NCBI GenBank assembly: GCA_002441045.1
Contig: DJWQ01000060.1
Coordinates: forward strand, 1 to 12,377
Reading direction: 5' to 3'
Length of the DNA: 12,377 nucleotides
DNA from: Firmicutes bacterium UBA6226
GTDB taxonomy: Bacteria > Bacillota_A > Clostridia > Peptostreptococcales > Acidaminobacteraceae
Under the pieces are notes generated by a model. That model saw only the letters and a program-made list of their open reading frames with translations, did no database searches and had not been told where the DNA came from. How positions within the stretch are numbered: position 1 is the first letter of the stretch; each line of letters opens with the position of its first letter. Below, in pieces: positions 38-12,365 of the stretch. A program made the translations under genes and the position numbers.

Positions 38-1264
38 TCACCACTTAACGTACTTAGTCTCGTTGAAGTTCTTCTTGTCTTTAAGAGCCTTGCTAATAGC
101 CAGATCGATTCCGCTCCTAGTTTTCAAGTGGTAGTAATATAAATCTTTAAAGGACGTATTAAGTCTATCTGTTCTCCCGGCCGCTTGAGTCATAACTTTG
201 TAGGAATAGTTCTGTGAGTAAAACACGATTGTATCAGTCTTGATGCAGTTCCATCCTTCACAACCAGCAGTATATTGGACGAGATATACCCAACTCTTAC
301 TATTCGGTATTGGTTGATGTTTGTGACCGTTCCATTCGGCGACTTCTACATCTTCGCCATAACCAAGATTTTTGAGTATATCCAACTCGTAATCAAAGTT
401 ATAAAATATGATCACTTTAGGATGCTTTTCAAAGATTTCTAAAACAGCCACTTGCCTGGATTCATCAGAATTCACGATTTTACGCCAGACATAACAAAGC
501 CCACCGGCGTTAACGATGGGTTCGTTTTTATATGGGTCCCAGCGAGTTCTAGTAGCATCCTTATACTTTTCTACACTATAAGAAACGTACACATCTTTGT
601 GATGAGCTATTGTCTCTCGCTTGAAGTCCATCGTTACAAGAATAGATCGTCTTAAACGAATCAACCTACCGGTATTAAGATAACGGTCGACCTTTGGAAA
701 CTTACTGAACCGGCTGTATACGATATGTTCTCTTGTGAACTCCGTTCGATTTTTGTAGAAGTCGTTCGCAATAAAGACCGGAATATAATCCTGCCAGGTG
801 TCACCGGGAGTTGCGGACAACAGAATCCAATCGTTACTCTTCGTGATCTTAAGGAAGGACTTTACCCATGCTCCGCTTCCGATTACTCGCTGCTCATCAA
901 ATATGAAGAAAGCGTCTTTGACGTCGATATATTTTCCAATATTGTTCCAGCTATCGACAACCACCTTTTGACCATGGTAGATATTAATTTCCGGATGAAT
1001 AGAAAGAAGGAAGGGCGAAAGCTCACCCTCCCATTCTAATGTATCTCTTTTTCTTGCAGTTGTGATGATATATAAGTCCTTAGGAGGATTATCCATCGGA
1101 ATATGATTACCACCAGTCAAGCTGTTTGGATCTCCACCATTTTGGAGATAGTAGTAGGATAAGGCGGTTAAACTTTTCCCCGAACCGACACCGCCACAAA
1201 GAACGCAGCCATTTTTCATCTGCTGGACAGCTTTTATCTGGTAATCAAATAACTTAATGGACAT
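38..1264 (-). CDS. SF2-type DEAD-like DNA helicase/translocase (phage replication or recombination)
   Basis: A 408-aa protein with the motif series of superfamily 2 helicases. It has a Q-like Tyr8-Gln9, Walker A GGVGSGKS at 24-31, motif II Asp123-Glu-Gln-Arg (DEQR rather than DEAD/DEAH), motif III SAT at 150-152, a motif V-like YTAGCEGWN near 331-339, and motif VI QAAGRTDR at 360-367 with two arginines. Such proteins couple ATP hydrolysis to movement on or unwinding of DNA, and compact versions are common beside phage polymerases. The open frame begins at a TTG (1267), but the ATG at 1264 is the better start: it lies seven bases after GGAGG and overlaps the stop of the HNH gene as TGATG, so the two are translationally coupled. 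No extra nuclease domain is visible. Helicase assignment is firm; the exact role (replication, recombination or repair) is inferred from context. Confidence 0.9.
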   Translation of the reverse strand: MSIKLFDYQIKAVQQMKNGCVLCGGVGSGKSLTALSYYYLQNGGDPNSLTGGNHIPMDNPPKDLYIITTARKRDTLEWEGELSPFLLSIHPEINIYHGQKVVVDSWNNIGKYIDVKDAFFIFDEQRVIGSGAWVKSFLKITKSNDWILLSATPGDTWQDYIPVFIANDFYKNRTEFTREHIVYSRFSKFPKVDRYLNTGRLIRLRRSILVTMDFKRETIAHHKDVYVSYSVEKYKDATRTRWDPYKNEPIVNAGGLCYVWRKIVNSDESRQVAVLEIFEKHPKVIIFYNFDYELDILKNLGYGEDVEVAEWNGHKHQPIPNSKSWVYLVQYTAGCEGWNCIKTDTIVFYSQNYSYKVMTQAAGRTDRLNTSFKDLYYYHLKTRSGIDLAISKALKDKKNFNETKYVKW

Positions 1265-1767
1265 CAATCAACCTCCTCAAAGCGATACCCGAGGTGTGAT
1301 TTTACCTTTCCAAGTAAGCAAGCTGAAATAGCGCTCTTATGGCCGCCTATATATTCAGCACACTCCGTAATACTTTGGAATATCTCTCCGGTTTCTAATA
1401 TTCGTACTTTCTTTGATGGATGTGGTCGAGGAGGGAGTCTATATGGAATAAACAAACCAGTTTTAATCGCGTGTCTTGTATTTTCCGAGTGTTTACACCA
1501 CTCTAGATTACCTATAAAATTGTTTTCTTTATCTCCATCGATATGATTGATTTCAAATTCTTCATAATCACAATCAAAAAAAGCAGCAGCTACAAGCCGA
1601 TGAATATATCTGGGATGATGTTTAGATTTACTAAATAACTTAATCTGTTGATATCCATTTTTTGTGGTGTAAGATTTCATTATTGTATTTGTTTTTAAAC
1701 TTCGAACACGCCCATAATTACTAACTTCGTAGTCATTAAAATCTTTAACTGGTAGCCAAGTTTCCAT
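1264..1767 (-). CDS. Free-standing HNH homing endonuclease (NUMOD4-HNH-NUMOD1 type)
   Basis: A 167-aa protein with three recognisable parts. Residues 4-24 carry the NUMOD4 pattern (W-x-PV-x-DF-x2-YEVSN-x-GRVRSL). Residues 56-100 carry an HNH_3-type nuclease core (HRLVA at 56-60, INHIDGDK at 73-80, Asn82-Asn83, NLEW at 87-90, Asn96 and His100). Residues 118-165 resemble a NUMOD1 DNA-binding helix segment. Proteins of this make-up cut DNA site-specifically and spread themselves or an intron; no intron or intein boundary is visible here, so it is probably free-standing. The ATG at 1767 follows AGGAGG (1775-1780) at a good distance. Its last codons (GAG GAG GTT GAT TGA) contain the ribosome binding site of the helicase, and the stop overlaps the helicase ATG, so it is fully built into the operon. 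A hairpin terminator lies just upstream. Confidence 0.92.
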   Translation of the reverse strand: METWLPVKDFNDYEVSNYGRVRSLKTNTIMKSYTTKNGYQQIKLFSKSKHHPRYIHRLVAAAFFDCDYEEFEINHIDGDKENNFIGNLEWCKHSENTRHAIKTGLFIPYRLPPRPHPSKKVRILETGEIFQSITECAEYIGGHKSAISACLLGKVKSHLGYRFEEVD

Positions 1768-1846: not shown

Positions 1847-2329
1847 TTAAAATGGTTCTTCCTCAGGACCCTCTGCTTCTGTATATTTAGCTGCAAATTC
1901 ATCCTCTTCGATGGTAACATACATGGTTTTTAAATAAGCCTTAATACCGGATTTATTATTTACAGTCCACGAATAGGGCCTGATGGTCAAATCTACATTG
2001 CGGATCTCAGCAAAATCCAACGTATCAATTGACTCGTTATCGAGAGGAGTCTGAGCTTTTCGTGTAACCATAATTACTTTTGGTGGAATGTTCATGAAGC
2101 TTACCGCAACCTGGAGATAATGTTTCACTTCATCGCCCTCATCACGAGGAGCTAGAATTCTCACATTCCAACCGTCCTCAGCCAACCTCTGAGCTTGTTC
2201 CGGGTCATCGATGATGACACAGAAGTTACGGTTACCAGCTCGATTATACTTTGTCTCCTTACCTGAGAAGTTTCTGAAAATGATACGGGCATTTTCGATG
2301 ATGATATTGTCTATGTTTTTATAAGACAT
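1847..2329 (-). CDS. Probable phage single-stranded DNA-binding protein (SSB-like tail)
   Basis: A 160-aa protein of a family I recognise from gut-type phages beside replication genes, usually left unnamed. It begins with a strand-rich region ([15 protein letters not shown] at 9-23) and has several short beta-like segments to residue 140, compatible with an OB-type fold, though I cannot prove the fold by eye. The C-terminus ([10 protein letters not shown], 151-160) is acidic and ends in Pro-Phe, closely resembling the acidic tip by which bacterial and phage SSBs recruit partner proteins. The ATG at 2329 was chosen over one at 2362 because it follows AAAGGGG at normal spacing and lies two bases after the upstream gene's stop. 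It sits between the replicase and the SF2 helicase and is followed by a hairpin terminator. ssDNA-binding is an inference from context, size and tail; a recombination mediator is an alternative. Confidence 0.68.
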
Positions 2330-2331
2330 AA

Positions 2332-2867
2332 TTATTCCCCTTTCGTATAATTTTTTTGACATGGTGCTTTTGCTATTTGTCCATCTGCTTGTAATAAAAC
2401 ATGTTCACAAGGACATTTATCTCGCATATTACCTGAAACATGAATGGATATCTCTTTCAGATTCTCACCTCTACCTTTTGGAACAAATTTTAGAAGATTG
2501 ATCTTGGTTCCTTCATTAACTTTAATCGGATTATCAAAACATTTAGAAGATAAACAAATATTTGCTTCAACATTTATTCCATTGTTGAGAACACGAGCAT
2601 TATATTTGATCTGCTCCAATGCATTCGTGTAAACCCACACGTTTTTTGTCCTACTTTGGCAGGCTTTAAGTATAAGATAAAAGTCGGGATGCGCTAATGG
2701 TTCACCACCTGATATATTTATTCTATCGCAATGACCCACATTATTTTTTTTTTCAAGAAGTCTAATATTGTCTTTAATGCCAAATGTTCACCTTTGGGGG
2801 TAGCATCTGTTGAACAATAATCGCAATTATTCGGACAATATTGGGTTATCTCAATAGTATACTCCAT
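2332..2867 (-). CDS. Radical SAM protein, split by a -1 frame change at an A10 run
   Basis: Reading from the ATG at 2867 gives [10 protein letters not shown] followed by Cys11-Pro-Asn-Asn-Cys15-Asp-Tyr-Cys18, the CxxxCxxC motif that binds the radical SAM 4Fe-4S cluster. This frame stops after 49 codons at 2718. Shifting by -1 within the ten A residues at 2744-2753 continues into the frame that encodes [14 protein letters not shown] (the GGEP SAM-binding motif) and runs to the stop at 2332, giving about 178 aa. The end has a CxC and a later Cys ([19 protein letters not shown]), like a reduced SPASM-type cluster site. The halves match one gene, so this is programmed or transcriptional slippage, a broken gene, or a base missing from the assembly. 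The ribosome binding site is a moderate AAAGGA. The reaction is unknown; QueE-type 7-deazaguanine synthesis and peptide or nucleotide modification are possible, but no partner gene is seen. Confidence 0.75.
2744..2753 (-). promoter_or_regulatory. A10 slippery run joining the two radical SAM frames
   Basis: Ten consecutive A residues on the coding strand, containing A AAA AAA heptamers of the type that support -1 ribosomal slippage (as in dnaX) and also RNA polymerase slippage. The frame upstream carries CxxxCxxC and the frame downstream carries GGEP; adding one A, or slipping by -1, fuses them. I did not identify a convincing stimulatory stem-loop or upstream Shine-Dalgarno by eye. Confidence 0.55.
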
Positions 2868-2894: not shown

Positions 2895-5800
2895 CTAAAA
2901 TGGCATACATTCATAACCAGCATCGCATATTAATTTTTCGTCAATTTCCCGAGTTTTTTCCCAATGCTTACATCCTTGACAATCGGTCTTACCGCACAAC
3001 ATGTCGTCCCAAGGAGGTTTTTCAGAAATATAAGGATCATCCGAAACAAACCATTCGAAATCGCCAAACTTCGAAATAGATTCCACAGCTTCATCGACCA
3101 TCTTGTCATAGTAAGACCTATCGACATCGGCCTCTTTTTCTAACTCGCTAACCATTTCGGACTCCAACCACCTGTAGCCTTTGGAGCCGGTAGCGGCAGC
3201 GTAACCTTTTTTTTCGGTTTTTTTGTTGAGTGTTTCTCTGAGCAGAATTCCTCCACCACACCCATCCTTAATTGGACAGAATTGACCAACCTTTCCTATA
3301 AAACGATAGTTATGTTCATCTTTTGGCAAGGACTCATTCATATCCAAATATAAGGCTGAGGTTACAGACTTGGTTTCACACATGTCCTCAAATATGATTT
3401 CTTCTTTACTGAAGAGTTTCTTGAACACATATGGAATCTGGAACTGAGTTCCGGTCGCAGTCCATTCGCCGGCGTGCTTACCATCTTTATATTTCGCAAT
3501 ATAAACCGCATCATTGACCAAACAGAATCTGTCGTACGTAGCCTCGTGTTCAAAGGTGTAGCCATACTGCTTACCATAATCCATAACAAACTTGATAATT
3601 TCCGGAGTAGCATCGGGAATTTTGATAGAGTCGGTCTTAACATGAGCAACAATAAAACCCCGTTTTTGCACCTCGTGTTTGAGGTTAATCATAAACAGGG
3701 CTCCACGTTTTGCTACGATATTGTCCTTGTTGCGAGAATCTCGGAATGGGTTATCAAAGCTTGCCGATGTAAGACCATATACTGAGTTGATTGCGATCTT
3801 TAGAGCCGTAGCCAAATCTGATGCCGCGTTCTCATCGGTTAAGTATTTAGCCAACGCTCCGCCCAGCATTTTTCTGGCTTTGTCAAAATCTTTATGTTTT
3901 ATTGCCATACGAGCATCCAAAATATCTTTGAATCTCTGCGTGTATTCCTCTCCAAAGAGTTTCTCAGCGACAATACTGCTAGGATGCATCGAAGCAACAT
4001 CCAACAACGCAACGTTACCATACATACCAGGCTCAGAATATACATATCCACCTTCGCCAGCTTCCTCGTCACGATAAGTTGACTTACCACCCTCAAACTT
4101 ATAACCAGGAAATATAGGTCTTCCTTTTTCATCGAAGATAGTATACTCGTCTCCAAATTCACTGTAGAAAATATCATTCTCTGTAACATGGTCTATACTT
4201 ATTCCAGTTAACTGGGCAGCATCTTCAGTCATTTCGCCCATGTTGCGGTAGTTGAATTGGTCTTGCGGTTTTCTGTTACTTCCAAATATAATTCGAGTGG
4301 TTAAAGTGTTTGTGGTATCATTAACCGTCATACCGGCGACATCAGCTAGGATTTGTCTTGCCAAGAAATCGGATTTTCTAGCGTTGAACGTAGCCTCGGT
4401 TGCTATAACATCGTTGTCACAATACTCAGCAACTTTTGTCCACATTTCTTCTGGCACCGGTTTATCCCATGGGAGACCAAGCTCCTGATGGTGGATGCCA
4501 AGTTCTATTTCGAACTTCTTAAGACCTTGCTTCTTGCTGGAGAAATCGTAAACGTCCGTATAAGATACGTTATAGGCTTCCCCAAAGAAACAATTCGCGC
4601 TACCGGAGATAATCTTCTGAGACAGGTTGTAGAGCTGCTCATTTGTATAACCCATCAATCGAGCATACAAAATATGATTATCATACCTTCGGCAATTGAA
4701 TCCAACCAATCTGAATCTCATAAGATCTTCAATTTCGGTCGGAGTAGGGTTAATCATCCGCACAACCGGTTTTCCTTCACCTTCAATTTTCCAATTCACC
4801 AAAAACAGGTTAGGGAATACCTCCACATCATAGAAAACCAACTTAGCATCCTCGTTTTTTCCTCCTGTGGATGGGTCTGCTGATTTAAACTGCATCTTGT
4901 TTACTAATTTAATACAATAATCGGCCTGGTTAGTGCTGCTTGCTGCAAATGCCAATACTGCATTACGCATATCTGTAATGTCATAATTTAAGTCGCTGGT
5001 ATGCGCATCTTCCAGTATTTTATAAATGAAATCGATACTGGGCTTAGTACCTGGATGTATCTCTTTGTTGAGATTTCGTTTGATCAGTGTTCTAAGCCCT
5101 TTCTCGCTTTTTATGGCTTCAAAATTTACCATTTTGTTTTCTCCTTTCAGTGGTAAACCAGAACTAATAGTCGAGATGGGTAAGTCGTTGCATTTTGACA
5201 ATTTTCGTCTCAATGAACTTTTCCCAATGAACACCTTAACTTCTATGTAGTCATCATAAACTCGGCTCAGTTTTGAGACGTCTCCAGTGTAAATATAATG
5301 CAGGTGTATTCCTGCACCACTCTTACTAAGCTCCGCATATGTAGGCGGCCATTTACTTGCTTCTTCGATGTTCTTTTCAAAAGATTTATTACCTTCTCCA
5401 TCTGGAATATCGAAGTCAATGACAATATGGTTTTCCGGGACTCTAACGTAGTGAATCCTAGATGTATTTAGCTCAGATAGTTTTGATGTCACATCATCCC
5501 ATTTATCAAATGGGGTTTTCTTCGATGTGGCGTACTGAGCAAGACAATTGGCACACTCCTTATCAAATATAGATTTCGTACTGGTAAATTTAATCAGAGG
5601 TACTTTTACTTGTTCCTCTTTTTCGTCGAGGTTGCTTTCTTCAAATTTTTCCGTCCGAAATCCGCTATAGTAACTTCGAACCCTAGATCCATCATCAAAA
5701 TTAAATCGATCCTTGTAATCCCGGAAATAATTCCTAAGCTCCTCCTTAAAGATTCTTTGCGAATATGGAAATGCTACCTTTGCCTCATCGCAGTAAGTTT

Positions 5801-6938
5801 TATACATTTCCCAAGCGGCTTTAAGAGTGGTTCCATCTTCCTTCTTGAACACATGGTATGAGTCAATAACGAAGTTGTAGAAATCGTTAGATGCACCAAG
5901 CATAGCCACTGGAATATAATCGTCGTACTTACCGGGATTACTCAAATATATCTCTTGGCAGTGACAAGCAATTGCCCCCAGCTCAAAACCGACCTGCTTC
6001 ACGATTGTTTTATACTCCTTTGGGTTTAACTTATCGCCGGAAGGGGATACGTCAATTAGCCTTCGGATGAGACCTGATTTCGCATCTGTAATTTTTACCG
6101 GCTTATTTGTGCCCAGGAACAGAAAACATTTAAATCGATTAGAGTAGGTCGATTTGAATTTCTCGTTTACCGTCATAAGCTCATGGGAAACAAGACTATT
6201 CAACCTCGTATTGTCTTCGATTTTAGAGAGGTCACCATCGTGTTGAATTGCTACAAGCGGATTGGCTTTAAACGCTTCTAGAGCAAAAGAGTTACTGGAC
6301 GAACCAAGAGCCCTCGCGTCAAATACCGAATAATACCCTTCAAATAACTGTTGGATGATATTGAGTATTGTAGATTTACCGGTTCCAGCTGCACCATACA
6401 GAACCATAAATTTCTGCAATTTCTTAGAATCTCCGGATACAATTGACCCGATCGCCCACTCAATCTTATGTCGCTCTTCCTCTACGTACAGAGTGGACAT
6501 CAGCTTGTCATAGGCAGACAAATCGCCAGCTTCAAGCGGATAACTCAGCTTTTTACTGGCGTAATCTTTTTTATCGGTTTTGTAGTTGGAAAATATAAGT
6601 TTCTCATCCAACATATGAAAGTGGTCTCTCATCTGCTTCTGACAATATTTATGCCAAGAGTCAATCATTCCAGACTCAGCGTCCCACATATGCAGAACCT
6701 TAATATTAGAGTCAAACTTCTGGCGGTTTTCTTCCGCATATTTATCTAATTCACGATCTATCAGCTGTAAAGCGTCATGCTCATCTGTAGACCATAAACC
6801 GCGTTCTTCAATCCAGATAGCGTAAAAATCACCGCCTCTAATCATGAGATCTGAGCTTTTTTTGATGATGAACTTTGGATAGATTTCTATTACACCACGC
6901 TTTGTACTGCGTGTTGAAATCATTAGAAAGTCAATCAT
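2895..6938 (-). CDS. Giant replicase: SF3 helicase - PrimPol primase - exonuclease - family B DNA polymerase fusion
   Basis: A 1347-aa protein in one uninterrupted frame. Residues 1-430 resemble a D5-like SF3 helicase: Walker A GAAGTGKST at 182-190, acidic Walker B-like stretch near 228-236, motif C FLFLGTNKP at 272-280 and an arginine pair at 292-293. Residues 455-600 resemble an archaeo-eukaryotic PrimPol: IDFDIPD with Asp508 and Asp510, SGAGIHLHY at 540-548 with His545, and a possible third acidic residue at Glu566. Residues 603-690 are helical, like a primase C-terminal domain. A DnaQ-type exonuclease follows (Asp704/Glu706; Asn748...Asp753; Tyr839-x3-Asp843). The polymerase core has motif A DVASMHPSS from Asp980, motif B KIAINSVYG at 1047-1055 and motif C KTDS at 1101-1104. 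A Cys cluster ends the protein (1315, 1320, 1323, 1338, 1344). The ATG at 6938 has GAGGAG at a long 11-base spacing and follows a coupled 20-aa ORF. Domain assignments are by motif; the PrimPol one is the least certain. Confidence 0.87.
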   Translation of the reverse strand: MIDFLMISTRSTKRGVIEIYPKFIIKKSSDLMIRGGDFYAIWIEERGLWSTDEHDALQLIDRELDKYAEENRQKFDSNIKVLHMWDAESGMIDSWHKYCQKQMRDHFHMLDEKLIFSNYKTDKKDYASKKLSYPLEAGDLSAYDKLMSTLYVEEERHKIEWAIGSIVSGDSKKLQKFMVLYGAAGTGKSTILNIIQQLFEGYYSVFDARALGSSSNSFALEAFKANPLVAIQHDGDLSKIEDNTRLNSLVSHELMTVNEKFKSTYSNRFKCFLFLGTNKPVKITDAKSGLIRRLIDVSPSGDKLNPKEYKTIVKQVGFELGAIACHCQEIYLSNPGKYDDYIPVAMLGASNDFYNFVIDSYHVFKKEDGTTLKAAWEMYKTYCDEAKVAFPYSQRIFKEELRNYFRDYKDRFNFDDGSRVRSYYSGFRTEKFEESNLDEKEEQVKVPLIKFTSTKSIFDKECANCLAQYATSKKTPFDKWDDVTSKLSELNTSRIHYVRVPENHIVIDFDIPDGEGNKSFEKNIEEASKWPPTYAELSKSGAGIHLHYIYTGDVSKLSRVYDDYIEVKVFIGKSSLRRKLSKCNDLPISTISSGLPLKGENKMVNFEAIKSEKGLRTLIKRNLNKEIHPGTKPSIDFIYKILEDAHTSDLNYDITDMRNAVLAFAASSTNQADYCIKLVNKMQFKSADPSTGGKNEDAKLVFYDVEVFPNLFLVNWKIEGEGKPVVRMINPTPTEIEDLMRFRLVGFNCRRYDNHILYARLMGYTNEQLYNLSQKIISGSANCFFGEAYNVSYTDVYDFSSKKQGLKKFEIELGIHHQELGLPWDKPVPEEMWTKVAEYCDNDVIATEATFNARKSDFLARQILADVAGMTVNDTTNTLTTRIIFGSNRKPQDQFNYRNMGEMTEDAAQLTGISIDHVTENDIFYSEFGDEYTIFDEKGRPIFPGYKFEGGKSTYRDEEAGEGGYVYSEPGMYGNVALLDVASMHPSSIVAEKLFGEEYTQRFKDILDARMAIKHKDFDKARKMLGGALAKYLTDENAASDLATALKIAINSVYGLTSASFDNPFRDSRNKDNIVAKRGALFMINLKHEVQKRGFIVAHVKTDSIKIPDATPEIIKFVMDYGKQYGYTFEHEATYDRFCLVNDAVYIAKYKDGKHAGEWTATGTQFQIPYVFKKLFSKEEIIFEDMCETKSVTSALYLDMNESLPKDEHNYRFIGKVGQFCPIKDGCGGGILLRETLNKKTEKKGYAAATGSKGYRWLESEMVSELEKEADVDRSYYDKMVDEAVESISKFGDFEWFVSDDPYISEKPPWDDMLCGKTDCQGCKHWEKTREIDEKLICDAGYECMPF
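5130..5148 (-). promoter_or_regulatory. Internal ribosome binding site and ATG within the replicase
   Basis: Inside the replicase frame, GAAAGGAG (5148-5141) is followed after eight bases by an in-frame ATG at 5132 (Met603). It falls exactly at the boundary between the PrimPol part and the PriCT-exonuclease-polymerase part. Its match to the Shine-Dalgarno consensus is as good as that of most true starts in this window. Initiation here would give a 745-aa exonuclease-polymerase without the helicase and PrimPol domains. Alternatively it is a relic of two formerly separate genes, or chance. Confidence 0.5.
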
Positions 6939-8659: not shown

Positions 8660-9136
8660 TCAATCGTATTTTGAAAAATAGTGATTTTCGACTTGAAATA
8701 GAGGAATTCCATATTTGCTATAATGACCCGCAGTAAAAAACATAACGTCGTAATTAGTTCGAGACTCAAGTTCTTCTCTAACTAGCTGGCAAATATCCTC
8801 TCTGACTTTACATCGATCTATCCTGCCGTTCCACATTGATGAAAAATGTTTTGGTTGATACACAACGTCGTATATTGTATTTGGAAAGTGTTTTGAATCC
8901 ACGCGATTTAGGATAGTGTCGATTACCAGTCGTTTCCCTTCCTCGCATTCTCCCTCCGCTTCTGCCATCGTCACTAAGGCTATTAATTCGATGTCTTCAT
9001 TAGATATCAATTCAACGTCCTTATTAGAGACTAAAGCTACAATTTTTTCAGTTTCTACATCATCGCCTGTAAAACCACTACAAGCCACAAAAATAAAGGT
9101 CAGAGAGAGAATAACTATTTTGCTTATTTTACACAC
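8660..9136 (-). CDS. SleB-like cell-wall hydrolase with a lipoprotein signal
   Basis: A 158-aa protein. The GTG at 9136 was chosen because AGGAGG lies six bases upstream; the open frame extends further back to a TTG at 9175, but that runs through a terminator stem. Residues 1-19 form a lipoprotein signal (MCKISKIVILSLTFIFVAC, lipobox FVAC with Cys19). Residues 50-155 match the SleB/Hydrolase_2 pattern of spore-cortex and cell-wall lytic enzymes: IALVTMAEAEGE with candidate catalytic Glu59 or Glu61, then LVIDTILNRVDSKHFPNTIYDVVYQ, then the FFTAGHYSKYG and FQVENHYF ends. Such enzymes cleave peptidoglycan glycan strands. Lipid anchoring would place it on the outer face of the membrane, unusual for a phage lysin. 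Two 8-residue repeats sit in the linker. The gene follows a terminator with no visible promoter. Confidence 0.83.
   Translation of the reverse strand: MCKISKIVILSLTFIFVACSGFTGDDVETEKIVALVSNKDVELISNEDIELIALVTMAEAEGECEEGKRLVIDTILNRVDSKHFPNTIYDVVYQPKHFSSMWNGRIDRCKVREDICQLVREELESRTNYDVMFFTAGHYSKYGIPLFQVENHYFSKYD
8984..9031 (-). repeat. Imperfect 24-bp tandem duplication in the hydrolase linker
   Basis: Two adjacent 24-base units encode VSNKDVEL and ISNEDIEL (residues 36-43 and 44-51) between the lipobox and the catalytic domain. The DNA copies differ at several positions, so the duplication is not very recent. It lengthens the linker between membrane anchor and enzyme. Confidence 0.7.
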
Positions 9137-9149
9137 ATAGGTCCTCCTA

Positions 9150-9190
9150 AAATAAAAAACTACCCTCCAATTCAAAGATCAAAGGGTAGT
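9150..9190 (-). terminator. Rho-independent terminator after the 310-aa DUF6353-like gene
   Basis: On the minus strand ACTACCCT (9190-9183) pairs perfectly with AGGGTAGT (9166-9159), with a 16-base loop and then a run of T residues down to about 9151. It lies about 27 bases after the stop of the 310-aa gene. Only ten bases separate the stem from the ribosome binding site of the hydrolase gene. Confidence 0.82.
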
Positions 9191-9216: not shown

Positions 9217-10149
9217 TCACATCATATCCCAAATATTACCGTCTACATTGAAATCAAGAAGGATCGTCCTCTCGTAGCCATTTACGAAATTACGGACCGT
9301 TTCCCTGTGGACATTATAAATACCGAAATCAACATAGTTATCGCCAATAGGATTTTCAGCATCGTAAACCCAACCAACTACCTGTCCGGCTTTTGTTCGA
9401 GGAATGCCAAGCATGTCATATACTTCATTCAAGAAGAGGCAACCATTTGCTCTGAGTTTATCGTTCGCATAATGTTGCTGAGCACGAAGAAACATCAGAT
9501 TATACTCTGAATCCTTTTCCCATCCAGTACAACCATCATCAAAAAACCGAGCGTAATCGCTATAAGTGTTAGGGTCTTCGGCTACTTGGATGGTTTCTTT
9601 AACCTTCTTTTCCTTACCATCTTCACCAACGACGATTTTTTCAATCTTTTTAGCTTTGATGTTGTGTCTTAGTTCGCGTTCTACTTCCTCACCAAAACGC
9701 TCGACTACACGGTTTCTGTATTCCTTGAATCCTTTATCCACCGTAGCATAAGCCGCAGCCAGAGCTACATTACGCTGACGAAGAATATTGTTCGATGCCA
9801 GTATGCTTCCAAGAGACAGGGCTCCAAGAGCTACTGCCGGAGCATAAAGCTTCGCAAGCTTAACGCCGGTTTGAACATAGACAATTGCCAGGTCCTTCTT
9901 TACATCTTCAGGAGTATATTCTTCTGCCAAAGACTCGTTAGCCGCGCAATTATGGATAGAATTAATATCTTCTTTAGTTTTCTCTAGAATATCACTCACC
10001 TTAGTGGTAGCCTTACAAGCCATAACGGCGCTTACTACGGTTCCAACCACACCTGCTACCACAAGAATTTCTGGGCTATGTTTCTTGAGTTTAAAACCCA
10101 TCTTGTTAAACGAACTACTTAAAGTTGTCATAAGTTCTGCTTTTTTCAT
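9217..10149 (-). CDS. DUF6353-like phage membrane protein (310 aa)
   Basis: Recognised as DUF6353-like, a phage family of unknown function. Residues 23-50 hold the family signature KHSPEILVVAGVVGTVVSAV...CKATTK with the first membrane segment (about 28-45). A second hydrophobic segment covers 102-120 (YAPAVALGALSLGSILAS), followed by RNVALAAAYATVDKGFKEYR (126-145). Residues 165-190 are a charged Lys/Glu insert absent from the shorter paralogue at 11601-12365. The C-terminal part has LNEVYDMLGIP...GWVYD...DNYVDFGIY (240-278), a module shared with two neighbours. The ATG at 10149 follows AAGGAG at 11 bases and lies two bases after the DUF6378-like stop. A terminator follows. The likely topology is two membrane passes with a large cytoplasmic C-terminal domain; the function is unknown. 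Confidence 0.85.
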   Translation of the reverse strand: MKKAELMTTLSSSFNKMGFKLKKHSPEILVVAGVVGTVVSAVMACKATTKVSDILEKTKEDINSIHNCAANESLAEEYTPEDVKKDLAIVYVQTGVKLAKLYAPAVALGALSLGSILASNNILRQRNVALAAAYATVDKGFKEYRNRVVERFGEEVERELRHNIKAKKIEKIVVGEDGKEKKVKETIQVAEDPNTYSDYARFFDDGCTGWEKDSEYNLMFLRAQQHYANDKLRANGCLFLNEVYDMLGIPRTKAGQVVGWVYDAENPIGDNYVDFGIYNVHRETVRNFVNGYERTILLDFNVDGNIWDMM

Positions 10150-11600: not shown

Positions 11601-12365
11601 TTACCTATAGTCATACTTAGGTGCAACTTGATAATCAATAACAAGACAAGGTGTCCCATCATCAGCTAATTGTGAACTAAAATTCAAATCTATGTATCCG
11701 TGGTCAATATTCCATCCAAGATCATCGCCGATACTGGTAGGATTAAGCCCGATTTCATAATAGAATTCGTTGAGTGAAATATACATTTCATCTCTCATTT
11801 GTCGATTGAGTTCATTCTCGATTTTTTTCAATTTATCAATATCTGATTTGAAATATCGACCTGAAATCACATCATAGCAGAGGGTGTTACCTCTTTCGGT
11901 AATGATTATTTCTCGACTACTAACCGGATCTCGATTAATCCTATCCTTCGCAACAGCATCTCTTACAGACTGTTCTTTTTTCTCACCGATAGCTTCGATT
12001 ACTTTTCCTTTGTATTCTTTCAGAGCTGACTCGGATAGAGTATAAGCCGTAGCTAATGCAGCGTTACGACGGACATTTACTGAACTAGCCCCTACTAGAC
12101 AAGCAATAGATAAACCTCCAGTTACAGCCGCAGGAATATAACAAGTCCATGCAGTTTTTACGGTTTCAATGAATGTAAGTTTGTCTACGTCATCATTATT
12201 TTTTCTCTCTTCAATAAGTATAATCGCCTTCGGGGTTGCTTTGACTGCCATTACGGTAGTTGTAACCATTCCAGCGATACCGATGCCCGTTAATATCTCT
12301 GGACTGTGTTTACTTATTGTCATCCGTATACTTTTGGCAATTTTAGATAAGTTTGGTTTATTCAT
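11601..12365 (-). CDS. DUF6353-like phage membrane protein, shorter paralogue (254 aa)
   Basis: Shares the DUF6353-like layout with the 310-aa protein at 9217-10149. KHSPEILTGIGIAGMVTTTV...VKATPK lies at 19-46 with membrane segment 1 (about 22-42). Segment 2 is near 74-94 (CYIPAAVTGGLSIACLVGAS), then RRNAALATAYTLSESALKEYKGKV at 99-122 and the C-terminal LNEFYYEIGLNPTSIGDDLGW at 198-218. It lacks the Lys/Glu insert of the longer copy and has its own extended C-terminus. The two proteins are clearly related but far from identical, pointing to an old duplication or two independently acquired family members. The ATG at 12365 is only 12 bases from the window edge, so its ribosome binding site cannot be seen and a slightly different start is possible. 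Function unknown. Confidence 0.85.
   Translation of the reverse strand: MNKPNLSKIAKSIRMTISKHSPEILTGIGIAGMVTTTVMAVKATPKAIILIEERKNNDDVDKLTFIETVKTAWTCYIPAAVTGGLSIACLVGASSVNVRRNAALATAYTLSESALKEYKGKVIEAIGEKKEQSVRDAVAKDRINRDPVSSREIIITERGNTLCYDVISGRYFKSDIDKLKKIENELNRQMRDEMYISLNEFYYEIGLNPTSIGDDLGWNIDHGYIDLNFSSQLADDGTPCLVIDYQVAPKYDYR

What the first reader, a model, noticed from the sequence alone, without database searches (positions are those of the whole stretch)
2895..6938. One polypeptide appears to carry helicase, primase, proofreading exonuclease and family B polymerase
Seen in the sequence: one 1347-codon frame with SF3 Walker A (182-190) and motif C (272-280), PrimPol-type Asp508/Asp510 and His545 motifs, DnaQ exo I-III, and PolB motifs A-C. 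Known: PrimPol-helicase fusions such as pRN1 ORF904 place the primase first and lack a PolB; primase-polymerase fusions also exist on archaeal plasmids. Here the helicase comes first and a complete PolB is appended. Inference: a near one-protein replisome that unwinds, primes, copies and proofreads.
Basis: partly seen in the sequence, partly recalled or inferred. Interest (0 to 1): 0.8.

Follow-up and report, generated by a model that had tools for sequence, protein, structure and literature searches.

The report
Known four-in-one phage DNA replicase
A phage gene encodes one protein with a DNA-unwinding motor, a primer maker and a proofreading DNA polymerase; the architecture is real, but the family is already named and one member has already been purified and shown to do all four jobs.

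The parts
2895..6938 (-). Whole helicase-primase-polymerase gene, 1347 aa (HelPrimPolB / GP55-type replicase)
5601..6938 (-). Residues 1-446: SF3 (D5/DUF5906-type) helicase
   Evidence: DUF5906 E=9.5e-13; TIGR01613 E=3.7e-13 but 49 bits, below its cut-off of 108.7; profile vs PDB: 7ola DNA primase 1.9e-7, NrS-1 helicase region 6k9c/6k9e 0.0042; not modelled
6369..6395 (-). Walker A, residues 182-190 (GAAGTGKST)
   Evidence: K188 152/152; equals GP55 K189
6231..6254 (-). Walker B region, residues 229-236
   Evidence: D234 150/152, D236 146/152; assignment by position, motif recalled
6099..6125 (-). SF3 motif C / sensor 1, residues 272-280
   Evidence: N278 152/152
5121..5600 (-). Residues 447-606: AEP (PrimPol) catalytic core
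5406..5432 (-). AEP motif I, residues 503-511, D508 and D510
   Evidence: 152/152, bias control; D510 equals GP55 D509, needed for priming
5295..5327 (-). AEP motif II, residues 538-548, H545
   Evidence: 152/152
5229..5249 (-). AEP motif III (assigned by position), residues 564-570, E566 and K568
   Evidence: 152/152 each
4869..5120 (-). Residues 607-690: helical domain (aHD of the GP55 paper)
   Evidence: helices in models; Y652 and F664 equal GP55 Y655 and F667, whose mutation abolishes priming
4359..4853 (-). Residues 696-860: 3'-5' exonuclease (DEDDy type by motif, recalled); ExoI 701-707, ExoII 745-756, ExoIII 837-846
   Evidence: D704/E706 equal GP55 D712/E714
3024..4358 (-). Residues 861-1305: PolB polymerase region; motif A 976-989, B 1043-1057, C 1097-1107 (KTDS)
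   Evidence: AF2 model of 446-1312, mean pLDDT 87.9; the 50 Foldseek rows shown are all PolB, best E 4.6e-15; profile hits E. coli Pol II 1.4e-6; D980 equals GP55 D949
1847..2362 (-). Partner: ssDNA-binding / single-strand annealing protein
   Evidence: PF24083 E=2.5e-57; phrog_4787, matched in 41 of 41 relatives' records and in 0 of 14 control genomes
38..1267 (-). Partner: SF2 helicase, 409 aa
   Evidence: phrog_62 E=2.2e-63, matched in 41 of 41 records, but also in 14 of 14 control genomes

Best explanation
It is a HelPrimPolB-type phage replicase, a homologue of GP55 of lactococcal phage 1706. The SF3 helicase opens the duplex; the AEP core plus the helical domain make a short RNA primer on exposed single strand; the PolB domain extends it, with proofreading by its exonuclease; and the helicase gives strand displacement. 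Shown here: sequence, folds of the AEP and PolB parts, conserved catalytic residues, conserved fusion. Shown by others for GP55 only: the four activities, dimer formation, and primase and polymerase able to work in trans. Inferred: that the window protein does the same in infection, with the phage's ssDNA-annealing protein and host factors.
For: Full-length phrog_4210 match; 40% identity over residues 19-1293 to GP55, with K188, D510, Y652, F664, D704, E706 and D980 identical to GP55 residues tested by mutation; AEP fold; PolB fold; SF3 profile matches; fusion kept in 145 of 160 loci, and one place covering at least 80% of the query in 252 of 341 phage records. DnaB_C is matched in 0 of 41 records and DnaG_N over the cut-off in 0 of 41 (one sub-threshold match of 25 positions with a stop inside, E 9.5e-4), while phrog_4210 is in 41 of 41. 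GP55 biochemistry, PMC12205980.
Against: No activity of the window protein itself is known. Its helicase part is only 33% identical to GP55's, against 58% for the AEP core, so nucleotide use and oligomeric state may differ. The AEP part has no significant sequence match to a solved structure; the case for it rests on fold and conserved residues. The helicase part was not modelled. The VIA match of the PolB part has a high rmsd (7.0 over 447). The 41 records are relatives and the 35 IMG/VR ones may be fragments, so absence of DnaB/DnaG is not proof; other primase families were not searched for.
Confidence: 0.96

Rival explanations
1. The middle domain is an AEP relic without priming activity, and priming comes from the host DnaG or another phage gene.
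For: Pfam does not call the domain in the window protein, and sequence matches to other primase families are weak (phrog_3022 E=0.0019, phrog_695 E=0.012).
Against: H545, E566, K568, R577 and R578 are identical in 152 of 152, and D508/D510 in 25 of 25 loci not fetched by that motif, which a relic would not keep. GP55 makes RNA primers and its D509A mutant is primase-deficient. No DnaG_N over the cut-off in 41 of 41 records.
Confidence: 0.03
2. The four-domain frame is an assembly artefact joining two genes.
For: The window lies in a 16.2 kb virus record that may be a fragment.
Against: Intact frames in 145 of 160 loci (some loci are near-duplicates), in sequenced phages FP_oengus, Tanis, ReqiPepy6 and 1706, and in homologues at 90-93% identity.
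Confidence: 0.005
3. The PolB part starts DNA by itself, like primer-independent PolBs, so the primase is dispensable.
For: Motif C lacks its first Asp in all sequences counted; Kazlauskas 2020 says primer-independent PolBs also lack it.
Against: GP55 mutants without a functional primase made no DNA de novo.
Confidence: 0.02

Closest known systems
GP55 of lactococcal phage 1706 (Zhang et al. 2025, PMC12205980)
   Same: Same domain order, 40% identity, identical residues at the seven tested sites that were mapped; Lys in motif C too
   Different: Helicase part only 33% identical; Walker A reads GKG in GP55 and GKS here (Ser in 149 of 153 aligned); about 38 residues near 905-942 here are missing in GP55
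HelPrimPolB group of family B polymerases (Kazlauskas et al. 2020, PMC7544198)
   Same: SF3 helicase and PrimPol fused N-terminal to PolB; divergent motif C
   Different: No difference found; the paper's figures and membership list were not seen
PHROG 4210
   Same: Full-length match, residues 2-1306, E=0
   Different: Annotated only as DNA polymerase
NrS-1 primase-polymerase
   Different: Primase first, helicase in the C-terminal region, no PolB (passages)
pRN1 ORF904
   Different: Primase first (passage); no PolB (recalled)
Listeria phage P40 gp31 and gp32
   Same: A related PolB (phrog_1252) and an SF3-type primase protein (phrog_864, DUF5906)
   Different: Two adjacent genes, not fused

Membership tests
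HelPrimPolB / GP55-type replicase | SF3 helicase at the N terminus | tested here: met
   (sequence only, not modelled)
HelPrimPolB / GP55-type replicase | AEP domain between helicase and PolB, with motifs I-III | tested here: met
HelPrimPolB / GP55-type replicase | aHD with the two residues essential for GP55 priming | tested here: met
   Y652: Tyr in 152 of 153, F664: Phe in 153 of 153 aligned sequences; helices
HelPrimPolB / GP55-type replicase | PolB with exonuclease and polymerase motifs | tested here: met
   motif C is KTDS
HelPrimPolB / GP55-type replicase | All in one polypeptide | tested here: met
HelPrimPolB / GP55-type replicase | Helicase, primase, polymerase and exonuclease activity | not testable with these tools
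   Shown for GP55 only
NrS-1 / pRN1-type PrimPol-helicase | AEP N-terminal to the helicase, AEP acting as the replicative polymerase, no PolB | tested here: not met
   Helicase first and PolB present
Primer-independent PolB (piPolB) | First Asp of motif C absent | tested here: met
   Lys in 152 of 152, 74 of 74 in the loci not chosen by motif C; the piPolB trait is from the text of PMC7544198
Primer-independent PolB (piPolB) | Starts DNA without a primase | not testable with these tools
   GP55 did not when its primase was inactivated

The most novel reading that the evidence does not exclude
The replicase may be one half of an obligate replication-transcription pair. In 40 of 41 longer relatives' records it occurs with a large RNA polymerase-like gene (phrog_4291; ADFDGD motif in the four checked), besides the ssDNA-annealing protein (41 of 41), so transcripts from that enzyme could open origins or supply first primers. 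Also, the lactococcal branch (GP55) may be atypical, so that the common GKS branch, to which the window belongs, would run its helicase on ATP.
Probability: 0.12. Interest if true: 0.45.

Novelty: already known. Interest (0 to 1): 0.15.

Why it matters
A single chain that unwinds, primes, copies and proofreads is a very compact replication strategy and a possible tool for DNA amplification, but that point has already been made in print with GP55.

Tried and rejected
Sequence search of the AEP part against solved structures gave only chance hits (Lactococcin-A immunity protein, E 0.14 and 0.63), so the fold route was used. An armadillo-repeat hit at 130-178 (153-178) was judged spurious because no stretch passed on its own. 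The piPolB-like reading of the Lys in motif C was rejected as main explanation because GP55 needs its primase. An assembly artefact was rejected. VIA-align's NrS-1 rows end at NrS-1 residue 176, so its helix bundle was not matched to the helices at 607-690; by the tool's own caveat that shows no difference, though the GP55 authors report no homology. Papers: PMC12205980 read in abstract, introduction, results and discussion, passages; PMC7544198 passages and one section; PMC5862659, PMC8775771 and PMC7102993 passages only. Paper searches: searches gave nothing further on this architecture that I followed; one search's listing holds PMC7544198 and PMC5862659; one search found 0 papers; two searches returned the two decisive papers. 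Kazlauskas 2016 (gkw322), Kazlauskas 2011 (gkr564) and the piPolB paper of 2017 are not held and were not read.

Full report
What is there. Window 2895-6938 on the minus strand is one frame of 1347 codons with an ATG start and AGGAG ending 11 bases upstream. The window is part of a 16,210-base virus record. PHROG 4210, 'DNA polymerase', matches residues 2-1306 with E=0.

Helicase. Pfam DUF5906 matches 180-293 at E=9.5e-13 and TIGR01613, a P4-type primase model, matches 171-390 at E=3.7e-13, with 49 bits against a cut-off of 108.7. A 45-sequence profile of residues 1-446 finds the solved 'DNA primase' 7ola (E=1.9e-7) and the NrS-1 helicase region 6k9c/6k9e (E=0.0042). Lys188 of Walker A, Asn278 of motif C and Arg292/Arg293 are identical in 152 of 152 aligned sequences.

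How far the counts can be trusted. The 152 sequences are the window, six named phages and 145 loci; 15 of the 160 fetched loci were left out before the count because they are incomplete or broken. The loci were fetched with short patterns, from AEP motif I and the helicase for IMG/VR, and from AEP motif I and polymerase motif C for GTDB, so the counts for those motifs are partly by construction. In a check, D508 and D510 are kept in 25 of 25 loci without the AEP pattern (12 IMG/VR, 13 GTDB). Lys1101 and Asp1103 are kept in 74 of 74 IMG/VR loci; all 71 GTDB loci contain the motif C pattern and say nothing. Of the 120 listed proteins, 120 contain KTDS and 118 contain a V[ILV]DFD string; P0018 and P0019 do not, and I did not look at their motif I. 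The sequences are related, so these are not independent events.

Is the fusion conserved? tblastn finds 341 phage records, 252 of them covering at least 80% of the query in one place. The lowest-ranking records in the spread listing match only part of the exonuclease/PolB region (H85-H100), and the three that I opened hold separate PolB genes of PHROG 1252. Of 160 loci from IMG/VR (best 80 of 445, itself capped) and GTDB genomes (best 80 of 169), 144 passed my test for a single complete frame, and L070 failed only because of a second small hit, so 145 of 160. Ten are cut by contig ends. Five are broken (L012, L071, L153, L158, L168), all between residues 831 and 995, none near 600. Because the patterns came from this protein's own domains and the best matches were kept, unfused relatives are under-sampled. 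The protein search scored 7997 candidates and all 7997 matched; that is a capped count, and only the best 120 were listed.

What it is. Kazlauskas et al. 2020 (PMC7544198; passages and the EpsilonN-like section) describe HelPrimPolB as PolBs fused to SF3 helicase and PrimPol domains, citing their 2016 paper, which is not held. Zhang et al. 2025 (PMC12205980; abstract, introduction, results and discussion; not the supplement) purified GP55 of phage 1706 and report UTP/dTTP-dependent unwinding, RNA priming with a strong site at 5'-CCAAC-3', PolB extension, 3'-5' exonuclease, strand displacement, mainly dimers, primase and polymerase able to work in trans, and over 1000 homologues. The window protein is 40% identical to it. 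GP55 K189, D509, Y655, F667, D712, E714 and D949 correspond to K188, D510, Y652, F664, D704, E706 and D980 here, all identical. Identity by part is 33% helicase, 58% AEP, 46% helical domain and 49% PolB.

How it most likely works. As GP55: helicase opens, AEP plus helical domain prime with RNA, PolB extends and proofreads. In 41 records (6 named phages and the 35 IMG/VR records above 45 kb among the 80) DnaB_C is matched in 0 and DnaG_N over the cut-off in 0, while phrog_4210 is in 41. Controls: DnaB_C rings in 14 of 14 known genomes, DnaG_N in 10 of 14, phrog_4210 in 4 of 14. Among the families searched the protein is therefore the only replicative helicase, primase and polymerase found; other primase families were not searched for, and IMG/VR records may be fragments. 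It does not act alone: an ssDNA-annealing protein (phrog_4787; 0 of 14 controls) and an SF2 helicase (phrog_62; a broad model, 14 of 14 controls) are in 41 of 41, and both are in the window. Zhang et al. note that GP67, the putative helicase of phage 1706, resembles RNA helicases.

Verdict. Observation and interpretation hold; the implied novelty does not. Open points are the nucleotide used by the GKS branch of helicases, the oligomeric state, the lysine in motif C, and why nearly all these relatives (40 of 41) carry a large RNA polymerase-like gene, phrog_4291.

Noticed in passing
L002:28591-31365, L003:26586-29300, L005:28090-31179, L171:22083-25172; not in the window: A 900-1030 aa RNA polymerase-like gene (phrog_4291, annotated RNA-dependent RNA polymerase; motif ADFDGD in the four checked, two of them from close relatives) is matched in 40 of 41 records with this replicase; the miss is the record of L072. 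The records are related, so this may be common descent only.
   Followed up: partly
L071:8716-9282, L153:9210-9821, L158:2222-2854: In three of the five broken homologues an HNH endonuclease ORF lies in the break, at about residues 892-943 of the replicase; L153 also has an anti-repressor-like ORF there. Looks like a homing endonuclease insertion site.
   Followed up: partly
window 1264-1767: HNH endonuclease with NUMOD4 motif whose end overlaps the start of the SF2 helicase ORF by four bases.
   Followed up: no
ORF residues 886-943, window 4110-4283: A loop in the polymerase varies from 16 to 79 residues across 152 sequences; part of it is modelled at low confidence.
   Followed up: no
MG757154.1 36235-36651 (L007's record), and the IMG/VR records of L054 and L090: Small separate matches to pieces of the same family: helicase pieces in Streptomyces phage Bing, AEP pieces of 57 and 42 model positions in the other two. 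Possible remnants or recruited domains.
   Followed up: no
window 2332-2739: 135-aa ORF with a weak radical-SAM match (Pfam E 0.0095, positions 45-86 of 166), overlapping the annealing-protein ORF.
   Followed up: no
window 9217-10149 and 11601-12365: Two copies of the phrog_2152 (DUF6353) family of unknown function; FP_oengus has three annotated.
   Followed up: no
window 8660-9175: Cell wall hydrolase (PF07486) with a lipoprotein-like start, judged by eye.
   Followed up: no
P0004, P0026: Two close homologues carry the source name 'energy-coupling factor transporter ATP-binding protein EcfA2', probably a mis-annotation from the Walker A motif.
   Followed up: no
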